This document shows positions 30,036 through 42,091 of a stretch of 64,000 nucleotides of DNA, piece after piece (the stretch's first letter is position 1; each line of letters begins with the position of its first letter). The notes beneath the pieces are model-generated. The model made no database searches. It had not been told where the DNA came from and saw nothing but the letters and a program-made list of their open reading frames with translations. The position numbers were made by a program, and so were the translations under genes. This stretch comes from Fusibacter sp. 3D3 (GTDB lineage: Bacteria; Bacillota; Clostridia; Peptostreptococcales; Acidaminobacteraceae): the NCBI RefSeq assembly GCF_001748365.1, contig NZ_BDHH01000002.1:293023-357022 (forward strand), read 5' to 3'.

Positions 30036-31403
30036 CTAAACCTTCTTTTGATATTTACTAGACCAATTGGTCTTAATCACTTGTCTTTCGCGTGCAATTG
30101 CTAGCGCACCTTCAGGTACATCGTCCGTTATGGTTGAGCCTGCTGCCACATAAGCACCTTTTCCGATTTTAACAGGCGCTACCAAGTTTGAATTACAGCC
30201 AATAAACGCATGATCCTCGATCTGAGTCAAATGCTTCTTTGTGCCATCGTAGTTGACGAATACAACACCACACCCCACATTGACATGCGTTCCGATTTCG
30301 CCATCACCCACATAAGTGAGATGTGATACTTTTGAAAAATCACCTATTCTGCTATTTTTCACTTCAACAAAATCACCAATTTTAACATGCTTTCCGATAT
30401 CCGATTTTGGTCTTAAATAAGCATAAGGCCCAATAGAAGCATTGTCATCTACTTTTGAATCGACTAGGGTAGAATGTTTAACGCTTACGCCCTCACTGAT
30501 CTTTGAATTCTTAATATCTGCACTAGGTCCGATCATACATGAGTCTCCAATGATCGTGTTGCCTTGTAAGATACTATTCGGATAAATAACAGTGTCTTTT
30601 CCAATTTGAACGTCTATCTCAATATAGATGCTTGATGGGGAAATCATCGTTACACCTTCTAGCATCCACTTCTTCTTAATGCTCTGTTGCATGTATTCAT
30701 CTGCAAGCGAAAGATTGTAGCGATCATTAATGCCCATCACTTCATAATCATCTTCTGCTACCATAACACCAATTTTCCCTTGTTGTTTTAAAATCAGCTC
30801 AAAAATATCCGTTAGGTAATATTCATTTTGCTCATTGTCATTTTCAAGTTGTTTAAGCAGCGTCTTTAAGATTGGTGCTTTCACAATCATAATGCCTGAA
30901 TTGATTTCTTTGATTTCAAGTTCTTCTGGTGTGGCGTCTTTATGTTCAACAATTCTTTCAAAGCCTCTAGAGCCTCTTACAATTCTACCATAACCCTTTG
31001 GATCATCTACCTTGGTCGAAAGTACAGTCGCATCATTATCACCGTTTTGATGCATGGATACAAAATCATTTAGAGTCGCTTTTGAAAGCAATGGTACATC
31101 TCCAAACAAGATGAGAATATCCCCTTCCATAATATAGTCATCTGCCATCATGACCGCATGCCCTGTGCCAAGTTGTACATTTTGCTCCACAAATTTTACA
31201 GGTGCGCCCTTGAGCTGCTCTATAACCTGTTCTTTCCCATGGCCCACAACACATATAATATTCTCACTGTTTACAGATTGTGCAACTCTTATAACATGTT
31301 CTACCATTGACATGCCAGAAACGTTATGTAGAACCTTGGGTAAACTTGATCTCATACGCCTGCCATGCCCTGCTGCAAGTATCACTGTGGTCAATTTTTT
31401 CAT
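30036..31403 (-). CDS. glmU: Bifunctional GlmU (N-acetylglucosamine-1-phosphate uridyltransferase / glucosamine-1-phosphate acetyltransferase)
   Basis: A 455-residue enzyme making UDP-GlcNAc for peptidoglycan. The N-terminal uridyltransferase begins VILAAGHGRRMRSSLPKV, the pyrophosphorylase signature; the C-terminal half (from about 250) is a left-handed beta helix of hexapeptide repeats with the VNYDGTKKH acetyltransferase site. Length is standard. In Bacillus spoVG is its upstream neighbour; here the 10-kb glutamate-polymer island lies between. The gene has its own extended -10 promoter upstream. Confidence 0.97.
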   Translation of the reverse strand: MKKLTTVILAAGHGRRMRSSLPKVLHNVSGMSMVEHVIRVAQSVNSENIICVVGHGKEQVIEQLKGAPVKFVEQNVQLGTGHAVMMADDYIMEGDILILFGDVPLLSKATLNDFVSMHQNGDNDATVLSTKVDDPKGYGRIVRGSRGFERIVEHKDATPEELEIKEINSGIMIVKAPILKTLLKQLENDNEQNEYYLTDIFELILKQQGKIGVMVAEDDYEVMGINDRYNLSLADEYMQQSIKKKWMLEGVTMISPSSIYIEIDVQIGKDTVIYPNSILQGNTIIGDSCMIGPSADIKNSKISEGVSVKHSTLVDSKVDDNASIGPYAYLRPKSDIGKHVKIGDFVEVKNSRIGDFSKVSHLTYVGDGEIGTHVNVGCGVVFVNYDGTKKHLTQIEDHAFIGCNSNLVAPVKIGKGAYVAAGSTITDDVPEGALAIARERQVIKTNWSSKYQKKV

Positions 31404-31453: not shown

Positions 31454-31525
31454 TTTTTATACAGAAAACTAAACCTTTATTCTAAAAAAATGAAAAAAAG
31501 TTCGTAAAAAGTAACAATTAAAGGC

Positions 31526-31558
31526 AAAAGAGCGGCACAACATCTGCACCACTCTTTT
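31526..31558 (-). terminator. Intrinsic terminator of the ggt unit
   Basis: AAAAGAGCGG (31526-31535) and CCACTCTTTT (31549-31558) form a G-U-containing stem; the minus-strand transcript ends CTCTTTT. It marks the downstream border of the accessory island. Confidence 0.65.
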
Positions 31559-31592
31559 ATTATACAATATGACTTAACTCATTTGTTTGATC

Positions 31593-33425
31593 CTAGTATC
31601 CTAAAGCTTTGCCATCACGACGTGGATCAGCGCCACCTTCTAAAGTACCATCTTCCAAATATTTGACTGCGTTTACAGAACCAAATGATCGACTCCAATC
31701 ATCACTAAGTTTAACAATATGTCCTATTGCTTCGAGTTCAGCAATGACTTCTGCAGGTACTCTTGTCTCAATTGTAATCGTATTCTTATTGAATCCGCTA
31801 ATTCTAGGGGCATCTATCGCTTCTTGCATGCCCATATCATGGTCAACAAGATTAGAGATGATCTGTGCAACCGTTGAGATAATCGTCGTTCCACCAGGTG
31901 TTCCTAAAACAGCAAAGGGTTTACCCTCTTTTAGAACAATTGTAGGTGTCATAGATGACAGTGGTGTTTTGCCACCTGCTATTGAATTGGGATGATCTGC
32001 TTGAGTTACGAAATCTGCCATTTCATCATTCATGACGAAGCCATATCCTGGAACTGCTACTTTTGATCCAAATACATAGTTGACCGTTTGGGTTACCGCT
32101 ACGATGTTGCCTTTATGATCTGCTACTGAATAATGTGTTGTATCCTCATGTTCAAACATCCAAGGATCATCTGGTATTACATTTTCAGCAGAAACGCTTA
32201 AATCAATTTTATCTGCTAATTTTTTTGCATAAGTTTTATTCATTAAACCTTTTAAAGGAACTTCTACAAACTTTGGATCTCCCATATATGCGCCACGATC
32301 CGCATACGCGAGTTTAAAGGCTTCTGAAAAAAGATGCAATTCTTCTGCTGAATTATCTGCCATTGATGGTAAATCAAAGTTCTCAAGAATATTTAAAATT
32401 TCTAAAACAATTGTACCTCCTGAAGAAGGCGTTGGAGAAGAAATGATTTCATAGCCTCTGTACGTGCCCTTTACAGGTTCAGTCACTTCCACTTGATAGT
32501 TTGCCATGTCGTCCATTGTGAAAACCCCACCGTACTTGTTGACAGAGGCTACAACCGCTTCAGCAATTTCACCTTTGTAGAACACATCTGCGCCCTGTGC
32601 CATAATGAGCTCAAGTGCTTTTGCATACTCCGGATTTTTGAAATTTTCTCCGATTTCATAAGGATACTTGATCCCATCGATCTCTTTTAAGAAGAGCTCT
32701 CCACTCTCAGAGTAAAGTAATAATTTATCATAATTGTTTTTCATATCACTTGATAAAGTCGGTGTAACAGTAACGCCTTTTTTAGCAAGTTCTATAATAG
32801 GTGTCAATATTTCTTCTTTTGACATTGTGCCATAGTGCTCAAGTGCGTATAATAATCCCGCCACATTGCCAGGTACGCCAACTGATTTTCCACCTAATTT
32901 ATTTTGTTCGCCAATAACTACTGATTTGCCCTCTGCATCTGTATAACTCTGCCACATATCTGGCGTTGCAGCCATAGGTGCTCTCTCTCTAAAGTCGATA
33001 AAAAGCGTTTCGCCATCTTCAGTTCTAAGTGTCATAAAACCGCCGCCACCAAGACCAGATGAGTTTGGTTCTGCAAGTCCAAGAGCAAAGCCAACTGCCA
33101 CTGCTGCATCTACTGCATTACCGCCTTTTTCCATTATTTCTTTACCAATTTTTGAAGCTTCATACTTGCCTGATGAAACCACACCCGTGGTGCCTTTTGC
33201 ATCTCGACCCGTCTTCGTAAGCACGCCATCTGCATCGAAGAGCACGAAATCGTCAAGTGAAGTATAAGCCGATTCAGAATCACTTTCTCCGGTTGATTCA
33301 TTCGCCAATGCCACTGTTTCCCCAGATGGTTCCTGAGCTGCCGGCGCCTGTGCAGCTGGTGCTGCACAGCCAGCAAGTAACAATACGACGAGCATAAATG
33401 CAATGATACTTTTAGTCATTTTCAT
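31593..33425 (-). CDS. ggt: Gamma-glutamyltransferase, exported lipoprotein
   Basis: A 610-residue N-terminal-nucleophile hydrolase. The N-terminus is a lipoprotein signal with lipobox LAGC (Cys20), followed by an Ala/Pro/Glu/Ser linker to about residue 55. R147 in DFRERAP corresponds to the arginine that holds the gamma-glutamyl carboxylate. Self-cleavage is expected before T429 in the DTTHYSV motif, giving large and small subunits; the SSPTPSSGG and PLSSMTPT segments are present. Ggt cleaves or transfers gamma-glutamyl groups; CapD, which anchors poly-gamma-glutamate, is a relative. Downstream of a polymer synthesis operon and a zinc hydrolase, trimming or anchoring of poly-gamma-glutamate is likely, with glutathione use the alternative. 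Confidence 0.9.
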   Translation of the reverse strand: MKMTKSIIAFMLVVLLLAGCAAPAAQAPAAQEPSGETVALANESTGESDSESAYTSLDDFVLFDADGVLTKTGRDAKGTTGVVSSGKYEASKIGKEIMEKGGNAVDAAVAVGFALGLAEPNSSGLGGGGFMTLRTEDGETLFIDFRERAPMAATPDMWQSYTDAEGKSVVIGEQNKLGGKSVGVPGNVAGLLYALEHYGTMSKEEILTPIIELAKKGVTVTPTLSSDMKNNYDKLLLYSESGELFLKEIDGIKYPYEIGENFKNPEYAKALELIMAQGADVFYKGEIAEAVVASVNKYGGVFTMDDMANYQVEVTEPVKGTYRGYEIISSPTPSSGGTIVLEILNILENFDLPSMADNSAEELHLFSEAFKLAYADRGAYMGDPKFVEVPLKGLMNKTYAKKLADKIDLSVSAENVIPDDPWMFEHEDTTHYSVADHKGNIVAVTQTVNYVFGSKVAVPGYGFVMNDEMADFVTQADHPNSIAGGKTPLSSMTPTIVLKEGKPFAVLGTPGGTTIISTVAQIISNLVDHDMGMQEAIDAPRISGFNKNTITIETRVPAEVIAELEAIGHIVKLSDDWSRSFGSVNAVKYLEDGTLEGGADPRRDGKALGY

Positions 33426-33461
33426 AGTTTTATCCCCCTTGATTTTAAAGCCTATTTTACT

Positions 33462-33505
33462 AATGAGTATTGAATCTGGTCATTCAGATTCTATTTATAA
33501 GCATA
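33462..33505. other. Hairpin between the zinc hydrolase and ggt
   Basis: GAATCTG and CAGATTC form a 7-bp stem with a 6-base loop, and GAGTAT/ATACTC further out can extend it. No T-run follows, so it may be a processing or translation-control structure rather than a terminator. Confidence 0.35.
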
Positions 33506-33516
33506 CTCGCAGTTGA

Positions 33517-34662
33517 TTAGTGCAAATATTTACCTAATTGCGGGCCCCCTAAATCTTCCTTTGAAGCCTCTAAAAAAAGTGCTTCATAAGTTGGCACGTT
33601 TGAAAAAGTAACGGGTTTTTCTCCATATTGATTTGAATACGCTTTTGTATACTCAATAATACCTTGAAGATGTCTGCCCACACGTTCCTCTATTGGATGT
33701 CCAGATTCATCATAGGGCACATATAAAAATCCAAGTTCTTGACTTTTTACATAAGATTTATCGATGCCTGTCAGTGCAAGCGCCTCATTTGTCGCCCCTC
33801 TAAGGCGCCCCTGAGAAGCATTAGCGGTTTCCATCAAAAGTGGGATTGTGTCTGTATAGTCTCCAAGTTCACGATGTGTAAGTCCATGAAGATTTGACGG
33901 AGAAGGTTCAAGTGCCATCTGGATTCCTGAAAACTGCAATTCCATAACACCCTCAGCCGCAACGCTCATCCCCTTTTCGTGAGATACGGTGGCATTGATT
34001 ACTGGATATTCTGGCGATGCCTCATGAAGGTCAAAAGTTAAATTCACCTCTTCATTTCTGATGAGTTCAGCGATTGCGAAAGCTGCCTGCTCAGTGGGCG
34101 TTCCATCTGGACGTCCTGGGTAAGCTCTATTGATATTTCTGGTTTCGGAACCTGATAATTGTTGGCCTGAAGCCGCGTGAACATAAACATCTGGATCTGG
34201 CCACTGATCTATTGGATTAGAAGCCCTAGAACCATATCTGAAAGTTCTCGTTCCAGTTTGAGTTGGAATATGAATAAATTGTGGTGACGCTTCCTGAGCA
34301 TCATTATGTGTCATCCCACTGTGGTTTGTATACGGAATCACATAGACAGTACCTTCTTCTATAACCGCATTTTCAATGAAGGTTATGGCGCTTAAATAGC
34401 CCGAAGGTTCGTTGCCATGAGTCCCGCCGAGAATTAAAACTTTTCCGCCTGGTTTAGTCCCCTCAAGGACATAGACCTCTGTATCCATATTTGTATCTTG
34501 AATACCCTCAAAATAATCCGATAGCATTTTCACTTCTTTCACACTAGGCCCTGGCACAATCTCGCCTAAATCTTTTAGTGATAAAAAATTCATACTAGAA
34601 AGCACCATGATAACGATTGCAATAGCTAGGCACAAAGTACCCGTTAGATAATGTTTCTTCAT
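33517..34662 (-). CDS. Membrane-anchored M14/AstE-AspA-type zinc hydrolase
   Basis: A 381-residue protein with one N-terminal membrane helix (about 8-28) and an extracytoplasmic catalytic domain. Zinc ligands of the carboxypeptidase/aspartoacylase fold are visible: H82 and E85 in GGTHGNEPSG and H213 in DLHEASPEYP. RNINRAYPG provides the substrate-binding Asn-Arg pair. Relatives cut amino-acyl amides (succinylglutamate, acetylaspartate) or peptides. Sitting between a permease and gamma-glutamyltransferase in the poly-gamma-glutamate island, it may cut the polymer or remove acyl groups from glutamate; this is inference. It follows the 48-residue membrane gene by ten bases. Confidence 0.75.
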   Translation of the reverse strand: MKKHYLTGTLCLAIAIVIMVLSSMNFLSLKDLGEIVPGPSVKEVKMLSDYFEGIQDTNMDTEVYVLEGTKPGGKVLILGGTHGNEPSGYLSAITFIENAVIEEGTVYVIPYTNHSGMTHNDAQEASPQFIHIPTQTGTRTFRYGSRASNPIDQWPDPDVYVHAASGQQLSGSETRNINRAYPGRPDGTPTEQAAFAIAELIRNEEVNLTFDLHEASPEYPVINATVSHEKGMSVAAEGVMELQFSGIQMALEPSPSNLHGLTHRELGDYTDTIPLLMETANASQGRLRGATNEALALTGIDKSYVKSQELGFLYVPYDESGHPIEERVGRHLQGIIEYTKAYSNQYGEKPVTFSNVPTYEALFLEASKEDLGGPQLGKYLH

Positions 34663-34672
34663 CCTTTGCCCC

Positions 34673-34819
34673 CTATTTAATCATTAAAAATCTTAAAACA
34701 AGTGGAATAATAACAAGTGCTGCATTTGCTTGATGTGTTATTTTTTCTTCTTCAAAAATATGCCATACTACAAAAATAAGCACCAGTGCAATTATACCTC
34801 TATAGATCAAAGTAATCAT
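34673..34819 (-). CDS. 48-residue small membrane protein
   Basis: A short gene with a clear ribosome-binding site (GGAG, 7 bases before ATG at 34819). It fits precisely between the permease (15-base gap) and the zinc hydrolase (10-base gap). The product has two hydrophobic segments (about residues 3-20 and 32-47) joined by a charged turn EEEKITHQ, so it should be a membrane hairpin. I do not recognise the family. It may be an accessory subunit of the DctM-like permease, in the place where a DctQ protein would be expected; that is a guess from position. Confidence 0.7.
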   Translation of the reverse strand: MITLIYRGIIALVLIFVVWHIFEEEKITHQANAALVIIPLVLRFLMIK

Positions 34820-34834
34820 ATGTCATCTCCGTTC

Positions 34835-36112
34835 TTACTTAAATACGATAAATGGCGCAATTTTATCTGAAAACACAATAAATAGAATTGCCCAAATAAT
34901 AATGATTAGGCTTGGCAAAATAAACTTTTTTAGAACTGGTTTATAGTCATCAAGTCCCACAACCTGTGCTGCAAATATACCCGCCAGCGCCGTAGGTGGC
35001 ATCATATCGCCTAAAGATGCAATCAATGAAATTGCAGATGCTGTGACGATCTGACTGCCGCTCAAAAACGCCATCAAGAACGGAACCCCGAGTACAGAGG
35101 CTGAACCATAAGAGGATACGGCGCCAAACAATGGAATTGTAACCGCCATCGCAATGTATCTCAAAGCATCCGGCAGACTAATACAAGCCGTTACGATTAA
35201 GCCACGAACACCTGTTAGCGTCATAATCTGTATAAACATCCCTACGCCCATTAAAATACCTAAAACCGGCAATACACTTTTAATCGATTCCTTGCATACT
35301 TTAGTCACACTAATGCGCTCTCCAGTAAAAGCGCCTACTATGGAGGCAATGATAAAGATCAAAGGCATGCCCAAGTTCGGCAACGTTGGAAAGGCTTTGT
35401 TGATCACCATTAGTCCTAGAGCGATAAATATTGGAATAAATATTTTAACTCCATATTTATCCATTGGCGCGTTGTTTAATTTTGACTTGATGAGATCATA
35501 TTCAAATTTCTTGACATATTTATAGCCAAACATTAGGACAAATAAAAACGCAAGTGGAAAAGTAAGCATTGCAAGTGGCCCTTCAAATCCAACGTATGGA
35601 ATATCTATGCCGCCGCCAATAATCATAACTGGAATATTGACTGGAGGTGCGATCATGCCTAGCAGACCACCCATGGCTATGATGCATGCCGTCTCAAGTG
35701 CCGGGATACCCATGATCATCAAAATTGGTGCCATGATAGATCCTGCTGACAATACCGCTGCAGTCGATGATCCTGTGATCATACCCGGAAACATGATTAC
35801 AAGCATGATCAAACAGAGGAGTAAAGCGGGTGTTTTATTGAATTTTTTTATTATAAGTGCGGAGAGCGCATCAAGCGCCCCAGAATCCTGTATTACTTTC
35901 ATAAAAATCATTGCAGTTGTAATAACCAGTACGGTGTCTACATATGAAAACATCCCTTCCACTAAGTGCCGGAGCGGAAAGCCATAGCCACCTACAAAAG
36001 CGCCCACAATAGCAGCTGCTACCATGGAAATACTCACAGGAAGCTTTAAAATAAAACAACCTGAAACAAACGTTATAATCATAGCTAAAAAAATGATCAA
36101 TTCAATGCTCAT
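34835..36112 (-). CDS. DctM-like TRAP-type large permease
   Basis: A 425-residue protein with about 11-12 membrane helices in an inverted two-halves arrangement. PGMITGSSTAAVLSAGS and LLGMIAPPVNIPV in the first half and FGAVSSYGSAS and DMMPPTALAGI in the second are the paired re-entrant loops of the TRAP DctM / ion-transporter superfamily. A normal TRAP system also has a DctP binding protein and DctQ; neither is seen. Instead a lipoprotein precedes it and a 48-residue membrane protein follows. The substrate is unknown; glutamate or gamma-glutamyl peptides fit the context. Confidence 0.8.
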   Translation of the reverse strand: MSIELIIFLAMIITFVSGCFILKLPVSISMVAAAIVGAFVGGYGFPLRHLVEGMFSYVDTVLVITTAMIFMKVIQDSGALDALSALIIKKFNKTPALLLCLIMLVIMFPGMITGSSTAAVLSAGSIMAPILMIMGIPALETACIIAMGGLLGMIAPPVNIPVMIIGGGIDIPYVGFEGPLAMLTFPLAFLFVLMFGYKYVKKFEYDLIKSKLNNAPMDKYGVKIFIPIFIALGLMVINKAFPTLPNLGMPLIFIIASIVGAFTGERISVTKVCKESIKSVLPVLGILMGVGMFIQIMTLTGVRGLIVTACISLPDALRYIAMAVTIPLFGAVSSYGSASVLGVPFLMAFLSGSQIVTASAISLIASLGDMMPPTALAGIFAAQVVGLDDYKPVLKKFILPSLIIIIWAILFIVFSDKIAPFIVFK

Positions 36113-36157
36113 GAAATGCCTCCCTCAAATTCGCAACAACAACTAGCGTTATACTTT

Positions 36158-36763
36158 TTATTTAAACGCAGCTTTGAGAGTTGCCGTAATATCTGACATG
36201 GTATTGACAACATCCATTGGTATCTTCGCATCTGATGCAAGACCAGCCATCAAGCCATCTTTATCCCCCGCCATTACAACGATTGCATAATCTGCTTTGG
36301 CAAAACTCGGCGCAATAAATTTATCGGAAAGTTCTCCTCTTCTTGCTTCTCCACCTATATGAACCGCAATAATCGTAATTCCAGCTTCATCTGCCGCATT
36401 TACCAGTGCAGATACTCTTTCAATTTCTTGATCCGCATCAATACCTGCAGCACCTAATCCTTTTGAAGAGCCGCCAACTGCCAAAATAAGCGTTTTAATA
36501 TCTGTTAAATCCGCTTCTGTAGCAGTCATCTTCATTGTCACTTCTATCTCATTTTTAGTAAGCATTGTCTTTACCATTTCAACATCTGCGGATTGTCCAA
36601 CCGAAGTTAACAATACCGGTCGTTCTGCAATGGGTTCTTTTAACCCCTCAATCGTTGCGACTTCAGCAACTGCCTCTGGTTTATTTGATGTATCATTCCC
36701 ACATGCCATTATGAGCATTCCCAATAACATGATTACTAAAAACACTGAAATTTTCTTTTTCAT
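36158..36763 (-). CDS. Lipoprotein, DUF6305-like
   Basis: A 201-residue exported lipoprotein: signal MKKKISVFLVIMLLGMLIMAC with the lipidation Cys at 21. The mature part begins with a linker, then RPVLLTSVGQSADVEMVKTML, followed by alternating strands and helices (LILAVGGSSKGLGAAGID, GITIIAVHIGG, DYAIVVMAGDKDG) that look like a small Rossmann-type fold. I recall this as DUF6305, of unknown function. Transcribed just before the DctM-like permease, it could act as the binding component of that transporter. It starts a new unit after the response-regulator terminator. Confidence 0.7.
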   Translation of the reverse strand: MKKKISVFLVIMLLGMLIMACGNDTSNKPEAVAEVATIEGLKEPIAERPVLLTSVGQSADVEMVKTMLTKNEIEVTMKMTATEADLTDIKTLILAVGGSSKGLGAAGIDADQEIERVSALVNAADEAGITIIAVHIGGEARRGELSDKFIAPSFAKADYAIVVMAGDKDGLMAGLASDAKIPMDVVNTMSDITATLKAAFK

Positions 36764-36797
36764 ATCTTCTCTCCCCTATCTTAAAATTACTAGATTT

Positions 36798-36840
36798 ACC
36801 TCTTATGGATCGTTAAGAGGTTCACACATTGTTTAAACAA
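36798..36840 (-). promoter_or_regulatory. Inverted repeats upstream of the lipoprotein gene
   Basis: Two palindromes lie 34-77 bases before the ATG: ACCTCTTA-n8-TAAGAGGT (36798-36821) and the perfect 12-mer TTGTTTAAACAA (36829-36840). They are candidate operators, for example for the response regulator encoded next door. No confident -35/-10 pair was found. Confidence 0.4.
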
Positions 36841-36945
36841 ATGTAACATATTGGCCTTAATCTTTCTATTTTTTCTCTTATTTATCTTATTTATCTCAGA
36901 GCTGTCCGAACAGGCCACTTTACACCGGGCGAAGACTCATGATCC

Positions 36946-36978
36946 AAAAAAAAATCGCCACATCAAGTCGATGCAGCG
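36946..36978 (-). terminator. Intrinsic terminator of the pgs operon
   Basis: A 9-bp stem CGCCACATC/GATGCAGCG with two G-U pairs, followed by nine T on the minus strand. It separates the synthesis and regulator genes from the lipoprotein-permease unit. Confidence 0.85.
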
Positions 36979-36997
36979 TTATTGAAGTGCTTTGGTC

Positions 36998-37633
36998 CTA
37001 TTGAATAAGTTTATACGTTTGTTTTGGCCTTCCCACTTTGCCGTAAGTACTTTTAACTTCAACAATATTCTCCGCCGAGAGATATTGCAAATATCGGTAC
37101 GTGGTTTGATAGGCGAGTCCAGAGATCTCCGAAATTTCTTCAACAGCAATGAAATCATCGATTTGAACCAGTGCATCTAAAATCAATTCAAGCGTTGCCA
37201 TGCCAATGCCTTTTGCAGGCACGAGCTCTACTTTGGGTTTTGTATTTGTCGTCTCACGCGTCTGTATCAATTTAATATGCAGTTTAATGCGAGATATGAT
37301 ATCGGGTGTTCTGATGGGCTTCATCGCAAAATCCGTTGCACCAACCTCTAAAAATCGATCTGCGAGTTCTTGACTTTCGTCAATAGTGAATACGATTATT
37401 GGAATATGAGCATCCAATGTCCTGATCATGCGCACGCCTTCAAAACCATTAATTCTTGGCATATGATAGTCCATTAATATCAAATCAGGCTTAAACTCTT
37501 TATAACATTCCAAACCCACCGCAACATTTTCAGCTGTAATTGCAACCCATCCTTGGCTTTCTATAACGGCCTTCAAAGCAAATCTTATGGCTTCATCATC
37601 ATCAATCGACAATATTGTCAAAATCTTGTCCAT
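36998..37633 (-). CDS. Response regulator with winged-helix-type output
   Basis: A 211-residue regulator. The receiver domain (1-120) has the acidic pocket DDD at 11-13, phospho-acceptor D55 in LILMDYHMPR, the threonine position in VFTID and K at MKPI. The C-terminal part (about 145-211) is a small helix-turn-helix domain (ISGLAYQTTYRYLQYLSAENIV) followed by GKVGRPKQTYKL, as in CitB/DcuR-like regulators of dicarboxylate systems. The gene overlaps the kinase gene by 32 bases. It probably controls this island, perhaps through the palindromes upstream of the lipoprotein gene. Confidence 0.88.
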   Translation of the reverse strand: MDKILTILSIDDDEAIRFALKAVIESQGWVAITAENVAVGLECYKEFKPDLILMDYHMPRINGFEGVRMIRTLDAHIPIIVFTIDESQELADRFLEVGATDFAMKPIRTPDIISRIKLHIKLIQTRETTNTKPKVELVPAKGIGMATLELILDALVQIDDFIAVEEISEISGLAYQTTYRYLQYLSAENIVEVKSTYGKVGRPKQTYKLIQ

Positions 37634-39023
37634 TTGCTACCCCCCATTCCTTTAGCACCACTTTAATCGTCGTGCCCACATCTAAAGTGCTTTCAATCTC
37701 AATCCACCCCTCATAGGCATCTACAACACTTTTCACAAAACTCAGACCTAGCCCATGAGAATGCTTCGTGGAATAGCCTACCTCCCATATTTTATCACAA
37801 TTTTTCATATCGATGCCACACCCATTGTCTGAGACTTCAAATCCCAAATAGGCACTTTCTTCAACAAAGAAGCGAGAAACAGTGATTTGTATATTGGGCA
37901 TCCTTTGTTTTGAAGCTTCATAGGCATTTTCAAGCAAATTGATGAGCACCCTGATCATCCGCGTTTTGCTCAAAATAAGCATATGCTTTGGATAATCATT
38001 ATGAACCATGACAAAGGGCGCATATTCCGCAATGGAAATTTGCGCTAAAACAGCATGAAGCAGTTCGTCAGTCGTTATAAAAGACTTATAATCTTCATAC
38101 AAAATTTCAGAAATCATCCCACTCATTCTATTTATTGCAAGTTCAACATTCTCTAAGTAGTTGACATCCTTGCTACGACCATCCATCTCGCAATTCAATC
38201 TGACCACGCCCACGAGTGCCTGTGCCGATGTCAACGGCGATTTCAAATCATGGACCAAACTGTTCATCTCTAAAAAAGTTCTATTTTTAAGTGCCGTAAA
38301 CTTTGCTTCAATTTCCATTTTCCGGTTGGCTTCTTTTAGAGCATTCATTGATCTCAAGTTATTCTCGTCCCGAATGAGCAAAAATAGAAGCGCCCCTAGA
38401 AAGAGCAGCAACAGCATAAAAACGAGGGCCATTATATCCACTGTTTTATCAGCGTTTAAAAAGTGAGCAACAAGTTTTACTTCGTTGGAAGTTTCACCTC
38501 TACCTATGGGCAATCCCTCCATGCTAGGCATAATATCCACAAATTGAAATGCAGTTAAAAAAACCATAATCAAGGCGGACTTCTTCCACCCGCTCACACG
38601 ATTGTAATCGTTCTTTCCCAAAAGCATCAAAAGTATGATCAAGACAAAAGCAGGCATGCCAAAGTAGTACTTGATGTGATGGATATAGCCAATAATAAAA
38701 TAGACGGGTGGAATGATGAGACATACCAATGCCGACTTAAATAATTTTTCAAATGGAAAATTGTCGCTAATTTCGATGGACTCGGCAATAAAAAATGCGC
38801 CTAGGTAATGTGGAAAAGCACGCAGAGAATTGAGTGCAATCAGTTCCAGCCCTGCAACCAATAAAATGATCACATCTTCATTTCGAATAGCAAGACTTAG
38901 TTTTTCAGGTATTTTAAAGGTATCCACTGTAATCACACTGGGAATAACAATGCCCAATATCACCATAATTAGCCCATACCAAAATTTAGCGCGGTTAAAA
39001 TTCTTGATATGAATACTGCTCAT
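37602..39023 (-). CDS. Membrane sensor histidine kinase
   Basis: A 473-residue kinase with six or seven N-terminal membrane helices (to about residue 217) and no large extracytoplasmic domain. A coiled coil leads to the phospho-acceptor H258 in LVHDLKSPLT. The ATPase domain shows the N box (LINLLENAYEAS), G1 DNGCGID and G2 HGLGLSFVK. The ATG at 39023 shares its A with the TGA of the preceding gene; a GTG one codon earlier is the alternative. Sensing through membrane helices suggests an envelope or transport-linked signal. It is cotranscribed with polymer synthesis genes, an unusual arrangement. Confidence 0.9.
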   Translation of the reverse strand: MSSIHIKNFNRAKFWYGLIMVILGIVIPSVITVDTFKIPEKLSLAIRNEDVIILLVAGLELIALNSLRAFPHYLGAFFIAESIEISDNFPFEKLFKSALVCLIIPPVYFIIGYIHHIKYYFGMPAFVLIILLMLLGKNDYNRVSGWKKSALIMVFLTAFQFVDIMPSMEGLPIGRGETSNEVKLVAHFLNADKTVDIMALVFMLLLLFLGALLFLLIRDENNLRSMNALKEANRKMEIEAKFTALKNRTFLEMNSLVHDLKSPLTSAQALVGVVRLNCEMDGRSKDVNYLENVELAINRMSGMISEILYEDYKSFITTDELLHAVLAQISIAEYAPFVMVHNDYPKHMLILSKTRMIRVLINLLENAYEASKQRMPNIQITVSRFFVEESAYLGFEVSDNGCGIDMKNCDKIWEVGYSTKHSHGLGLSFVKSVVDAYEGWIEIESTLDVGTTIKVVLKEWGVANGQDFDNIVD

Positions 39024-40078
39024 CACATGCCCCGCTTCCTATAAAAAAGCCCTAATAAGCCAACACTTAGAATAAACACGATACCAATCAACCCCTTAGG
39101 ATAGGCGATCTTGTGATATATGCCCCCGACACCTATTGCTGTTTGTGTCATAGGGTCAAACGGCATGCCGTAATCTAAAGTGATCTTTTCAATATTCAGT
39201 AAATTGATCACATCGACTTGTTTCGCAAGATAATGCTGTATGACCCCACTTTTTTCATCAACAATGCCTAAATAGCGCTTCCCATCCAAAAGGCCTTGTC
39301 CTAGCGTGATGGATTCCTCAGAAACACCCCCACTGGTTATATTGCCCCCAGCTGCGATAAAGCATGCTATATCCCCATAAGTCTTCAATCTCAATTGAAC
39401 ATTACGTTCCAAATCAGATTCCCTTAAAAGACTGAGACCTGCCTCTGCCAGCCTTTTTTCAATTTCAAGGCGTTTATCAGGGTCAATATTGACGCCCACA
39501 TCGAAGTCTCCACCGATTGAGACCATGGCACTATCTGTGCGGATCAGCCCCTCTTGATATAAACGATGCATCATCTCTGGAAATGTTAATGCGTAGTGAT
39601 TAGCGCCATAGGTAGATGCCCCAATGCTGGTTATAGGAATCATTTCAAGTCCCATCTCATCCGCTGCACAAATAACAGCTATATTGAGCGCAGGAAAGGA
39701 ACCTGAGAAGCCTAGGCCCACACGATCTCCTCTTTTAAGGTCTGCTTCATGAAACATTTTTATCATGAGGGCAGCCATATTGGGGTTTGCTGTGGTCCGT
39801 TTTGCTTTCACTTCCCCTAAGGTGGTCGTGATAAGATTAAAGGGTTCCCCGATCATCCCAGTCTCAAAGTAATCTTCGTCTGATAGGGGAATTCCTAGGT
39901 CATATTTATAGCGTTTAACTGCTGCCATGCATTTTTCCATTTGCTCAGCAGCATTAACTTGTTGAGTATAATAGGCATTTTTTTCAACTTTGCTGCATTG
40001 AGCAATTAAAACCAAAGATAAAATAAGAAAAATCAAGATTGCGCCTAATCGTATCTCCTCTTTTTTACTTATATTCAT
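39023..40078 (-). CDS. Poly-gamma-glutamate system protein
   Basis: A 351-residue protein that I recognise as the poly-gamma-glutamate system family found beside PgsB and PgsC. It has a membrane helix at each end (about 12-27 and 328-345) with a long external segment between, containing GDRVGLGFSGSFPALNIAV, SIGASTYGAN and AAGGNITSGG. The molecular role is unknown. It seems to take the place of PgsA/CapA, which is absent. It starts 46 bases after pgsC and overlaps the kinase gene by one base, so synthesis and sensing are coupled in one transcript. Confidence 0.8.
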   Translation of the reverse strand: MNISKKEEIRLGAILIFLILSLVLIAQCSKVEKNAYYTQQVNAAEQMEKCMAAVKRYKYDLGIPLSDEDYFETGMIGEPFNLITTTLGEVKAKRTTANPNMAALMIKMFHEADLKRGDRVGLGFSGSFPALNIAVICAADEMGLEMIPITSIGASTYGANHYALTFPEMMHRLYQEGLIRTDSAMVSIGGDFDVGVNIDPDKRLEIEKRLAEAGLSLLRESDLERNVQLRLKTYGDIACFIAAGGNITSGGVSEESITLGQGLLDGKRYLGIVDEKSGVIQHYLAKQVDVINLLNIEKITLDYGMPFDPMTQTAIGVGGIYHKIAYPKGLIGIVFILSVGLLGLFYRKRGM

Positions 40079-40124
40079 ATAAATTTCATCTCCTTATAAA
40101 TTGAAAGCACGGTATAACACATTT

Positions 40125-40559
40125 CTAAAACGAAATGACCGGCACACCAAGCCACATAATCACAAGTAGATTCAGAATAACGACAACACCCAGTGCTAAT
40201 GTTGACTTTAAAATACCTTGCCTCTCCCACTCTAAAGCGATAATACCTGGAACTATCTTGCCAATGATCCCTGGCGTATGCACTAAAATACCGCTTTGAA
40301 GGATGATGCTGTTTATGACAAAAGCAAGTAAAATCATAACAGCAAACCGTCTTCTTCCATAGAGAATCATAAAACTAGATAATAGCTTCGCGATGCCCCA
40401 AGTTAGGAAAACCACACCAAACGTATATAATATCCTATAAGGCGAATGAAAATTAAGTGCAAAATACCCCGCTACGATAAGACCTGATGGGGATATACCC
40501 GTTAATTCATAAAACAAGAGACTGATGACGATCCCTAGGATCATGATGTCGTTATCCAA
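40125..40559 (-). CDS. pgsC: Poly-gamma-glutamate biosynthesis protein PgsC (CapC)
   Basis: A 144-residue membrane protein with four or five helices. It resembles Bacillus PgsC across its length, including the ELTGISPSGLIVAGYFAL start and KLLSSFMILYGRRRFAVMIL centre. With PgsB it forms the gamma-glutamate polymerase and export complex. The frame is open further upstream, but a TTG at 40559, 8 bases after GGAGGG, gives the N-terminus expected by homology; it overlaps the pgsB stop by a few bases, so the two are translationally coupled. Confidence 0.9.
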   Translation of the reverse strand: MDNDIMILGIVISLLFYELTGISPSGLIVAGYFALNFHSPYRILYTFGVVFLTWGIAKLLSSFMILYGRRRFAVMILLAFVINSIILQSGILVHTPGIIGKIVPGIIALEWERQGILKSTLALGVVVILNLLVIMWLGVPVISF

Positions 40560-41676
40560 TTTCACGGCCCTCCATTTCAATTTTCCGCATCAGTTGAACC
40601 CCCTCATGCGCTATATTGCCCACTGCAAATACAAAAAAGTGCGCATCAATCGTTTTAAAGTCAATTGTACTTGAGGCGTTAAAAACTTTTACATCCATTC
40701 CCTTTTTTTCAAGAGTTCTCCTAGCCATGGCCTTCATAGACCCGATGAGCCACACTTCACTGGGTTTTAATTGTATGGCAAGTTCTATCATTTGCTGCGT
40801 CCTTGACAATCGATCCGCTCGACTATTGATCAAAAGAATACACTTTCTATGCTTCAGCAACGCGCTTTTCGTGAGCTTATCGTAAACGGCCATTGTGGAA
40901 TCAGGATCATTAATTGAAAAACCATTTACGAAAACACCACCACTTTCAAGAAGAAATAGACTGAGTGCATATGGATCTTTCTTGTAATGCTGCATCCCTT
41001 CCATAGCAACTTCTTTAGCAACACCTACATGTTCACAAACAGAAAGCGCCAAAACCATGTTTTCCCTAAAGTGTTCATGCTCAAATTCATTTTGTAGATT
41101 TGCTAAAATGACCTCTGTATGACGTTTTTTGGCATTCTGCTTGAGTTGGTCGTAAAAATTAACATCTGAAGTAAATAAGACGCCGTGCTCTGGAATTGTG
41201 CTGGATAGCGCATCACAGATTTCAGGCAATGTTTTTCCCATTTCTTCCATATGATCATGTCTCACATTTGTGATGACGCCGATGTCACTCCTGACCATTC
41301 GATCTTGTGAAATACACTGCAACTCTGGTGAGATCGCCATACACTCACACACTAAAATATCGGCTTTTTCTCTTTGAGCCTTTTTTAAAACCCAGAGCTG
41401 CTCCTTAATGTTAGGTTTTCCATTTCTTTTGATACGCCTTTCAACATTGTCTGTCCCAATCGTCAAAGGGACAGTCCCTGTGGTTTTACAGAATACGCGA
41501 TAGCCCCCTTGCCGTAGACCTGCATCTATAAGTCTAGTGACTGTGGATTTGCCACGTGTTCCGTTAATATAAATAACGTGCTTGAACTGCTTCCGCCTGT
41601 TAATTGCCAATTTGTTTTCTATTATAAATCCAATTATTGTAAGGGCGAAGAGAAAGATGATCCATTTTTCCAACAT
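40552..41676 (-). CDS. pgsB: Poly-gamma-glutamate synthase PgsB (CapB)
   Basis: A 374-residue Mur-ligase-like amide ligase that activates the gamma-carboxyl of the growing glutamate chain with ATP. It has one N-terminal membrane helix (about 4-19), the P-loop GTRGKST at 39-45, then the VITNVRHDHMEEMG block typical of PgsB and CapB. Bacillus PgsB is 393 residues, so this is nearly full size. It is the first gene of the synthesis operon, after the spoVG terminator. I could not see a convincing promoter. Folate or Mur ligase identity is excluded by the membrane anchor and PgsC neighbour. Confidence 0.93.
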   Translation of the reverse strand: MLEKWIIFLFALTIIGFIIENKLAINRRKQFKHVIYINGTRGKSTVTRLIDAGLRQGGYRVFCKTTGTVPLTIGTDNVERRIKRNGKPNIKEQLWVLKKAQREKADILVCECMAISPELQCISQDRMVRSDIGVITNVRHDHMEEMGKTLPEICDALSSTIPEHGVLFTSDVNFYDQLKQNAKKRHTEVILANLQNEFEHEHFRENMVLALSVCEHVGVAKEVAMEGMQHYKKDPYALSLFLLESGGVFVNGFSINDPDSTMAVYDKLTKSALLKHRKCILLINSRADRLSRTQQMIELAIQLKPSEVWLIGSMKAMARRTLEKKGMDVKVFNASSTIDFKTIDAHFFVFAVGNIAHEGVQLMRKIEMEGREIG

Positions 41677-41754
41677 AGGCTACCTCTGTTTGCTCTGCTT
41701 TTTAATACTACTATAATACACTTAAAAAGAATAGCATACATTTCGTTCCCCAAA

Positions 41755-41787
41755 AAGAAAAAAAGTCGTGTTTGAGACACGACTTTT
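41755..41787 (-). terminator. Intrinsic terminator of spoVG
   Basis: A perfect 10-bp stem AAAGTCGTGT (41762-41771) with ACACGACTTT (41778-41787), followed on the minus strand by seven or more T. It isolates spoVG from the pgs operon. Confidence 0.9.
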
Positions 41788-41797
41788 TAAGTACTGA

Positions 41798-42091
41798 TTA
41801 TTCACCTAGATAGTTAGGCTCTTCTTCATCTGTTAAAAGCTTTGCTTTTTCATACTCTGCAAATATAATATCTTGAATCATCGAGCGTGTTTCTTGATTT
41901 ATTGGATGTGCAATATCTCTATAATCGGATTCCCCAACCTTTCGACTTGGCATTGCCACAAACAACCCATTTTGTCCTTCAATTACCTTGATATCGTGTA
42001 CAACAAATGCATTATCAAAAGTCAAAGAAACGACAGCTTTCATTTTACCTTCTTCTCGTAATTTGCGAATTCTCACATCTGTAATATTCAT
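41798..42091 (-). CDS. spoVG: SpoVG family nucleic-acid-binding regulator
   Basis: A 97-residue protein starting [22 protein letters not shown], the SpoVG signature, with the central [19 protein letters not shown] block. SpoVG binds DNA and RNA site-specifically and affects capsule, cell wall and virulence genes in staphylococci and Listeria as well as sporulation in Bacillus, so it is also kept in non-sporulating species. It is transcribed alone here: a SigH-like promoter before and a terminator after. It lies next to a poly-glutamate capsule operon, so regulation of that operon by SpoVG is a testable idea. Confidence 0.96.

What the first reader, a model, noticed from the sequence alone, without database searches (positions are those of the whole stretch)
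31526..41787. Ten-kilobase poly-gamma-glutamate island inserted exactly between spoVG and glmU
In Bacillus spoVG and glmU (gcaD) are neighbours. Here the gap between them holds eleven genes: pgsB, pgsC, a gamma-glutamate system protein, histidine kinase, response regulator, lipoprotein, DctM-like permease, 48-residue membrane protein, M14-like hydrolase and gamma-glutamyltransferase form a coherent set, bounded by terminators on both sides. Combined synthesis, two-component control, extracellular cutting and uptake suggests a self-contained glutamate-polymer cycle (capsule plus carbon or nitrogen store). The cycle is inference; the genes and order are seen. SpoVG is known to affect capsule genes in staphylococci.
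Basis: partly seen in the sequence, partly recalled or inferred. Interest (0 to 1): 0.8.

Follow-up and report, generated by a model that had tools for sequence, protein, structure and literature searches.

The report
Clostridial polyglutamate make-and-recycle gene set
A Fusibacter genome carries, in one ten-gene block, the genes expected to make a gamma-linked glutamate polymer, cut it outside the cell, take the pieces back up and sense them; the same block recurs across many anaerobic Clostridia, so it is probably a real self-contained cycle, while its place beside spoVG is incidental.

Summary
The genes are there (ten, not eleven), in two terminator-separated units. Unit A is pgsB-pgsC-pgsW(TIGR04332)-HK-RR. 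Unit B is a DUF6305 lipoprotein, a DctM-like permease, a 48-residue two-TM protein, an AstE/AspA-type zinc hydrolase and GGT. The block sits between the spoVG terminator and the glmU promoter; a congener without the block has 195 bp there. That site is shared only with F. ferrireducens. F. paucivorans and other relatives hold the whole block elsewhere.

Linkage of the two halves is strong. Of 31 Clostridia-type PgsW loci with long flanks, 26 carry DUF6305, dctM, s48 and the hydrolase, and 11 carry everything. Outside Bacillota only pgsBCW is linked. PgsC loci without PgsW carry CapA or PghP-type genes instead and never the transporter set. DUF6305 is fused to the hydrolase in three genera. It also travels with the same HK-RR family beside peptide ABC transporters, which suggests a ligand sensor. 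An invariant 25-bp element, unique in the genome, precedes unit B in four Fusibacter loci.

Best reading: a dedicated polyglutamate synthesis, turnover and uptake module, a new variant of known PGA systems with PgsW where CapA normally stands. The polymer, the transported molecule and the sensed ligand are inferred. No link to SpoVG was found.

The parts
40552..41676 (-). pgsB: gamma-glutamate ligase (Mur-ligase type), 374 aa, N-terminal TM, P-loop K43
   Evidence: TIGR04012 348 bits vs cut-off 222.7; G39, R41, G42, K43 conserved
40125..40580 (-). pgsC: polytopic membrane partner of PgsB (start TTG at 40580 or 40559; overlaps pgsB end)
   Evidence: TIGR04011 100.9 vs 96.45; PF14102 100.5
39023..40078 (-). 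pgsW: TIGR04332 poly-gamma-glutamate system protein, 351 aa; TM helix 5-27, Rossmann-like ectodomain, TM helix 328-350
   Evidence: 315.7 bits vs 100; model pLDDT 95.7, pTM 0.92; next to pgsBC in nearly all fetched loci
37602..39026 (-). membrane histidine kinase (hydrophobic N-terminal half, HisKA H259, HATPase)
   Evidence: PF02518/PF00512; H259, N363, D400, G402 conserved; 7 hydrophobic segments
36998..37633 (-). response regulator, receiver (D55) plus C-terminal winged-helix-like domain
   Evidence: PF00072; D11, D12, D55, K105 conserved
36956..36978 (-). terminator-like hairpin between the two units
   Evidence: 10 pairs plus T run
36863..36887 (-). invariant 25-bp element AGATAAATAAGAGAAAAAATAGAAA upstream of unit B; an offset partial copy lies at 36872-36896 in the window and F. 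ferrireducens only
   Evidence: identical in four Fusibacter loci; single exact site in own genome; also exact in L014-L016
36839..36851 (-). invariant ATATGTTACATTT, read as extended -10 (TGT-TACATT), 17 bp from TAGAAA
   Evidence: promoter role is inference
36158..36763 (-). DUF6305 lipoprotein (lipobox C21), single Rossmann-like domain
   Evidence: PF19823 2.5e-53; model pLDDT 88.9
34835..36112 (-). DctM-like permease, 425 aa
   Evidence: PF06808 29.9 vs cut-off 23.8
34673..34819 (-). s48: 48-aa two-TM protein, conserved C-terminal (L)R-x-L-x-x-K
   Evidence: alignment A4 of 32 homologues, R43 and K48 invariant; sits between dctM and hydrolase in about 50 occurrences
33517..34662 (-). AstE/AspA-type (M14-like) zinc hydrolase with N-terminal membrane anchor
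   Evidence: PF24827; H82, E85, N178-R179, D211-H213-E214, E278 conserved
31593..33425 (-). gamma-glutamyltransferase lipoprotein, nucleophile T429
   Evidence: TIGR00066 528 bits; nearest solved relatives are ordinary GGTs (2e0w 5.5e-113), CapD far weaker (2.9e-42)
31525..31559 (-). terminator-like hairpin closing unit B
   Evidence: 16 pairs
41760..41788 (-). spoVG terminator-like hairpin (upstream boundary)
   Evidence: 12 pairs plus T run
41798..42091 (-). spoVG (flank, not part of the system)
   Evidence: 98% identical in F. ferrireducens
30036..31403 (-). glmU (flank, not part of the system)

Best explanation
The block is a self-contained, horizontally mobile gamma-polyglutamate cycle. 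PgsB ligates glutamate through the gamma-carboxyl, and PgsC with the double-anchored PgsW (in place of CapA/PgsA) exports or releases the chain. Outside the cell, the lipoprotein GGT (exo-acting) and the anchored AstE/AspA-type zinc hydrolase cut the polymer to glutamate or short gamma-glutamyl pieces. The DctM-like permease with its 48-residue partner takes these pieces back in. The DUF6305 lipoprotein binds the pieces at the membrane and reports to the histidine kinase. The response regulator then switches on unit B through the conserved element at 36839-36887. Shown: genes, catalytic residues, conserved linkage, fusions, cis element. Inferred: polymer identity, substrate of the permease, ligand of DUF6305, the regulator-element link and the physiological role (capsule that doubles as a recoverable glutamate store).
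For: Ten intact genes with family matches above cut-off for nine. All five PgsW-bearing family relatives hold all ten. Of 31 Clostridia-type loci with at least 9 kb on both sides, 26 carry DUF6305, dctM, s48 and hydrolase, 19 GGT and 13-14 HK/RR; 11 carry all seven partners. Of 15 non-Bacillota loci none has DUF6305, dctM or s48. The order duf6305>dctM>s48>hydrolase occurs 37 times. In a sample drawn without regard to neighbourhood, 17 of 26 PgsW genomes have DUF6305 within 8 kb on the same contig. Ten PgsC loci lacking PgsW have CapA or gamma-PGA hydrolase in most cases and no dctM/s48 set. DUF6305 is fused to the hydrolase beside pgsW in three genera. DUF6305-HK-RR recurs beside peptide ABC transporters. 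Active-site residues are conserved in hydrolase and GGT. An invariant 25-bp element, unique in the genome, lies upstream of unit B. GGT and a zinc peptidase are known kinds of gamma-PGA-degrading enzyme (PMC4497714).
Against: No polymer has been shown in Fusibacter. Family-level matches do not fix the substrate: DctM members move many carboxylates, and AstE/AspA enzymes act on N-acyl amino acids. CapA, part of the Bacillus-type synthases, is missing from the locus; one CapA-family gene lies elsewhere in the genome. Some Lachnospiraceae carry pgsBC with two pgsW genes and none of the partners, so synthesis can stand alone. HK/RR are absent from about half of the long loci.
Confidence: 0.62

Rival explanations
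1. Surface capsule with anchoring and trimming: GGT acts CapD-like, tethering chains to peptidoglycan; the hydrolase sets chain length; the permease only recovers waste. No store and no cycle as a purpose.
For: CapD, a GGT-family enzyme, anchors gamma-PGA in B. anthracis (PMC4497714); GGT and hydrolase carry membrane anchors.
Against: The window GGT is much nearer to ordinary GGTs than to CapD (5.5e-113 vs 2.9e-42). The dedicated permease, s48 and DUF6305 are more constant (26/31) than GGT (19/31), so uptake looks central.
Confidence: 0.22
2. Unit B is a general gamma-glutamyl peptide or acidic-metabolite scavenging system that happens to sit beside pgsBCW; the two units share a sensor but not a substrate.
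For: DUF6305-HK-RR works beside peptide ABC transporters in genomes without PgsW; the two halves swap order and strand between loci.
Against: dctM-s48-hydrolase accompanies pgsBCW in most fetched PgsW loci of Clostridia, the linkage survives order changes, and DUF6305-hydrolase fusions lie directly behind pgsW.
Confidence: 0.12
3. The polymer is not polyglutamate: the PgsB-like ligase builds another gamma-linked or mixed amino-acid polymer.
For: PgsW instead of CapA; PgsB belongs to the Mur-ligase/FolC superfamily.
Against: PgsB matches the PGA-synthase equivalog model well above cut-off, and the GGT in the set belongs to a family that acts on gamma-glutamyl bonds.
Confidence: 0.04

Closest known systems
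Bacillus PgsBCA(E)/CapBCA(E)-CapD gamma-PGA synthase operons
   Same: pgsB-pgsC core; a GGT-family enzyme in the same gene set (as CapD)
   Different: PgsW (TIGR04332) stands where CapA/PgsA is; added permease, s48, DUF6305, zinc hydrolase and two-component system
PghP / YndL zinc gamma-PGA hydrolases (PF05908)
   Same: zinc carboxypeptidase-like hydrolase acting on gamma-glutamyl bonds is a proven kind of PGA-degrading enzyme (PMC4497714)
   Different: the window's hydrolase is of the AstE/AspA family (PF24827), membrane anchored, and not matched by PF05908
TRAP transporters (DctPQM)
   Same: DctM-family permease with a small membrane partner and an extracytoplasmic protein
   Different: no DctP, no DctQ; the partner has 48 residues, and the extracytoplasmic protein is a 150-residue single-domain lipoprotein (DUF6305)
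Binding-protein/histidine-kinase/response-regulator three-component systems
   Same: extracytoplasmic protein gene adjoining HK-RR genes and a transporter
   Different: no sequence match of DUF6305 to a known binding protein was found here; no interaction shown

Membership tests
Bacterial gamma-PGA synthase (PgsBC core) | PgsB and PgsC above curated equivalog cut-offs, adjacent | tested here: met
   TIGR04012 348/222.7, TIGR04011 100.9/96.45
Bacterial gamma-PGA synthase (PgsBCA type) | CapA/PgsA (PF09587) directly after pgsC | tested here: not met
   TIGR04332 gene there instead; the only PF09587 gene found in the genome is on another contig, C9:173675
Bacterial gamma-PGA synthase | makes gamma-linked polyglutamate | not testable with these tools
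   needs polymer chemistry
Gamma-glutamyltransferase | TIGR00066 above cut-off and catalytic Thr | tested here: met
   528/358 bits; T429 conserved
CapD-type anchoring GGT | closer to CapD than to ordinary GGTs | tested here: not met
   CapD 2.9e-42 vs E. coli GGT 5.5e-113
TRAP transporter | DctM subunit | tested here: met
   PF06808 29.9 vs 23.8
TRAP transporter | DctP binding protein and DctQ subunit in the operon | tested here: not met
   none of the ten proteins matches them; s48 has two hydrophobic segments and 48 residues
AstE/AspA zinc hydrolase | family match plus H-x-x-E ... H zinc ligands and catalytic E | tested here: met
   PF24827 32.1/25; H82, E85, H213, E278 conserved in an alignment of 81 sequences
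Three-component sensor (extracytoplasmic protein + HK + RR) | gene adjacency with HK-RR and a transporter | tested here: met
   HK-RR beside DUF6305 in 14 of 14 loci fetched away from PGA genes; 13 of 14 with a family-5 peptide-binding protein
Three-component sensor (extracytoplasmic protein + HK + RR) | ligand-dependent contact with the kinase | not testable with these tools
   needs binding and phosphorylation assays

The most novel reading that the evidence does not exclude
DUF6305-HK-RR is an undescribed three-component sensor for gamma-glutamyl or peptide ligands. In Clostridia it has been joined to a minimal TRAP-like transporter (DctM plus a 48-residue subunit, no DctP/DctQ) and to a CapA-less, PgsW-type synthase, giving a closed polyglutamate make-cut-reabsorb cycle used as an external carbon and nitrogen store by gut and sediment anaerobes.
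Probability: 0.35. Interest if true: 0.75.

Novelty: new variant of a known kind. Interest (0 to 1): 0.6.

Why it matters
Gamma-PGA is known mainly from Bacillus slime and the anthrax capsule; how producers recover it is largely unstudied. A conserved gene set that couples synthesis to cutting, uptake and sensing, spread over Oscillospiraceae, Lachnospiraceae, Fusibacter and other anaerobes including gut species, gives functions to test for four unknowns (PgsW, DUF6305, the 48-residue protein, the AstE-like hydrolase). It would make an extracellular glutamate store directly testable. The library searched held no paper on the set.

Tried and rejected
(1) A 12-bp palindrome TTGTTTAAACAA upstream of the lipoprotein was first taken as an operator; it is not a palindrome in the other three Fusibacter loci, so it was dropped for the invariant 25-bp element. 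(2) Fold comparison gave no identity: PgsW best VIA Z 8.0 (114 residues, 2.7 A) and DUF6305 best Z 10.0 (143 residues, 3.0 A, sugar kinases), both only Rossmann-like resemblance; no solved relative by sequence. (3) A SpoVG link: no sign; position shared by one congener only. (4) A D-glutamate cyclase (PF14336) in the genome: none found, but the controls did not ring either, so uninformative. (5) A further constant partner gene beyond the ten plus a second short hydrolase: clustering of remaining ORFs found none. (6) Rfam: no RNA family in the window. (7) Weak 20-37-bit DUF6305 hits to other lipoproteins were discounted as signal-peptide and linker similarity.
Full report
What is there. Ten intact minus-strand genes lie between spoVG (41798-42091) and glmU (30036-31403). 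By curated models they are PgsB, PgsC, the TIGR04332 poly-gamma-glutamate system protein (called PgsW here), a histidine kinase, a response regulator, a DUF6305 lipoprotein, a DctM-family permease, a 48-residue protein without a family, an AstE/AspA zinc hydrolase and a gamma-glutamyltransferase. Three terminator-like hairpins divide the block into two units, A (pgsB to RR) and B (lipoprotein to ggt).

Host and site. The best-matching named genome is Fusibacter ferrireducens, which coincides with G002, listed as the same genus; the window's genome has 5.1 Mb. Most relatives in the genus, family and order have spoVG and glmU adjacent. Congener G001, which has no TIGR04332 gene, has a 195-bp gap. 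The glmU promoter stretch of that empty site is conserved downstream of ggt in the window and in F. ferrireducens. The block therefore sits between the spoVG terminator and the glmU promoter. F. paucivorans (L010/L015) and MAG DJKA81 (L009/L016) hold the same ten genes elsewhere. In the PgsW tree the four Fusibacter-type sequences form one clade (100/99), while two other members of the same family (L012, L085) fall far away, though on long branches. The module thus moved within Fusibacter and probably has more than one origin within the family. Island GC is 40.3% against 37.7% for the rest of the window, a mild difference.

Do the two halves belong together? All five family relatives with PgsW carry all ten genes; two of them have the units in the other order. 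A scan of species genomes gave 80 loci. In the Clostridia-type loci with at least 9 kb on each side (31), DUF6305, dctM, s48 and the hydrolase are each present in 26, GGT in 19, HK and RR in 13 and 14, and all seven in 11; 15 have a second, shorter hydrolase. None of 15 non-Bacillota loci has DUF6305, dctM or s48. The order duf6305>dctM>s48>hydrolase occurs 37 times. These loci were chosen by PgsW. As a sample free of that choice of neighbourhood, 26 of 398 phylum genomes have PgsW; 23 of them have DUF6305, and in 17 it lies within 8 kb of pgsW on the same contig (counted by hand). By contrast, the ten sampled genomes with PgsC above cut-off but no PgsW have pgsBC followed by CapA in at least five loci or by a PF05908 gamma-PGA hydrolase in two, several with GGT, and never with dctM/s48. 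The window's only CapA-family gene is on another contig. PgsW thus takes CapA's place in the gene order; that it takes its function is inference.

DUF6305. In three genera DUF6305 is fused to a hydrolase of the AstE/AspA family in one protein directly behind pgsW. In one MAG (L039) the lipoprotein carries three tandem DUF6305 domains joined by Gly/Ala/Ser linkers, which would suit multivalent binding to a polymer (inference). In 14 of 14 loci fetched from genomes without PgsW, or elsewhere in this genome (L110), DUF6305 neighbours HK and RR genes that the models of the PGA-linked kinase and regulator recognise at about 220-390 bits. Thirteen of these have a family-5 peptide-binding protein nearby and ten a full peptide ABC transporter. 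The common element is a transporter, so DUF6305-HK-RR is read as a transport-linked sensor. Its predicted fold is a single Rossmann-like domain without a specific solved relative.

PgsW. The model is confident (pLDDT 95.7, pTM 0.92): a TM helix at each end and a Rossmann-like ectodomain between them. There is no solved relative and no specific fold match. Conserved S127-F128-P129, S155/G158-A159-N160, G189-G190-D193 and G244-G245 mark a probable active or binding site.

Enzymes and permease. The hydrolase keeps zinc ligands and catalytic Glu (H82, E85, H213, E278) in an alignment of 81 sequences; GGT keeps T429; PgsB keeps its P-loop; HK and RR keep H259 and D55. GGT is nearer to ordinary GGTs than to CapD. 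B. subtilis GGT removes single residues from gamma-PGA, and PghP shows that a zinc carboxypeptidase-like enzyme can cut it (PMC4497714). DctM is without DctP or DctQ. s48 has two hydrophobic segments and an invariant R43...K48 end and sits between dctM and the hydrolase nearly wherever found, so a small permease subunit is the simplest reading.

Control element. Upstream of unit B the four Fusibacter loci share AGATAAATAAGAGAAAAAATAGAAA and, 11 bp on in the window, ATATGTTACATTT without a change, while the surrounding intergenic DNA is diverged. The element occurs once exactly in the 5.1-Mb genome. TAGAAA and TGT-TACATT at 17-bp spacing look like a weak -35 and an extended -10 behind repeats, the layout of an activator-dependent promoter. 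That the RR binds there is inference.

Verdict. The cycle reading is well supported as gene logic but untested chemically. The spoVG-glmU position is incidental. The pieces PgsB, PgsC and GGT are known; the recurring set with PgsW, the DUF6305 sensor, DctM+s48 and the AstE-like hydrolase is a new variant, with no paper found in the library searched (most subscription journals are not held there).

Noticed in passing
L110:7739-12014 (own genome C13): Second DUF6305-HK-RR set in this genome, beside a family-5 peptide-binding protein.
   Followed up: partly
L039:15937-17631: DUF6305 lipoprotein with three tandem DUF6305 domains joined by Gly/Ala/Ser linkers.
   Followed up: no
L062, L064, L067, L069: Lachnospiraceae loci with pgsB-pgsC and two tandem pgsW genes of separate clades, no transporter set; murC-like gene close by in three of them.
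   Followed up: no
L161:7301-8260, L163:7361-8206: pgsBC without PgsW or CapA, followed by a PF05908 (PghP-type) gamma-PGA hydrolase.
   Followed up: no
L011:11926-12636 and about half of the long Clostridia-type loci: A second, shorter AstE/AspA-type hydrolase (also a weak Peptidase_M99 match), often beside pgsB.
   Followed up: partly
L011:19549-19986: ORF that looks to the eye like the C-terminal part of a D-glutamate cyclase, next to an extra GGT; not tested with a model.
   Followed up: no
L156 (G369): The kinase position holds a 717-aa ORF and pgsC a 246-aa ORF, possible fusions or start-site artefacts.
   Followed up: no
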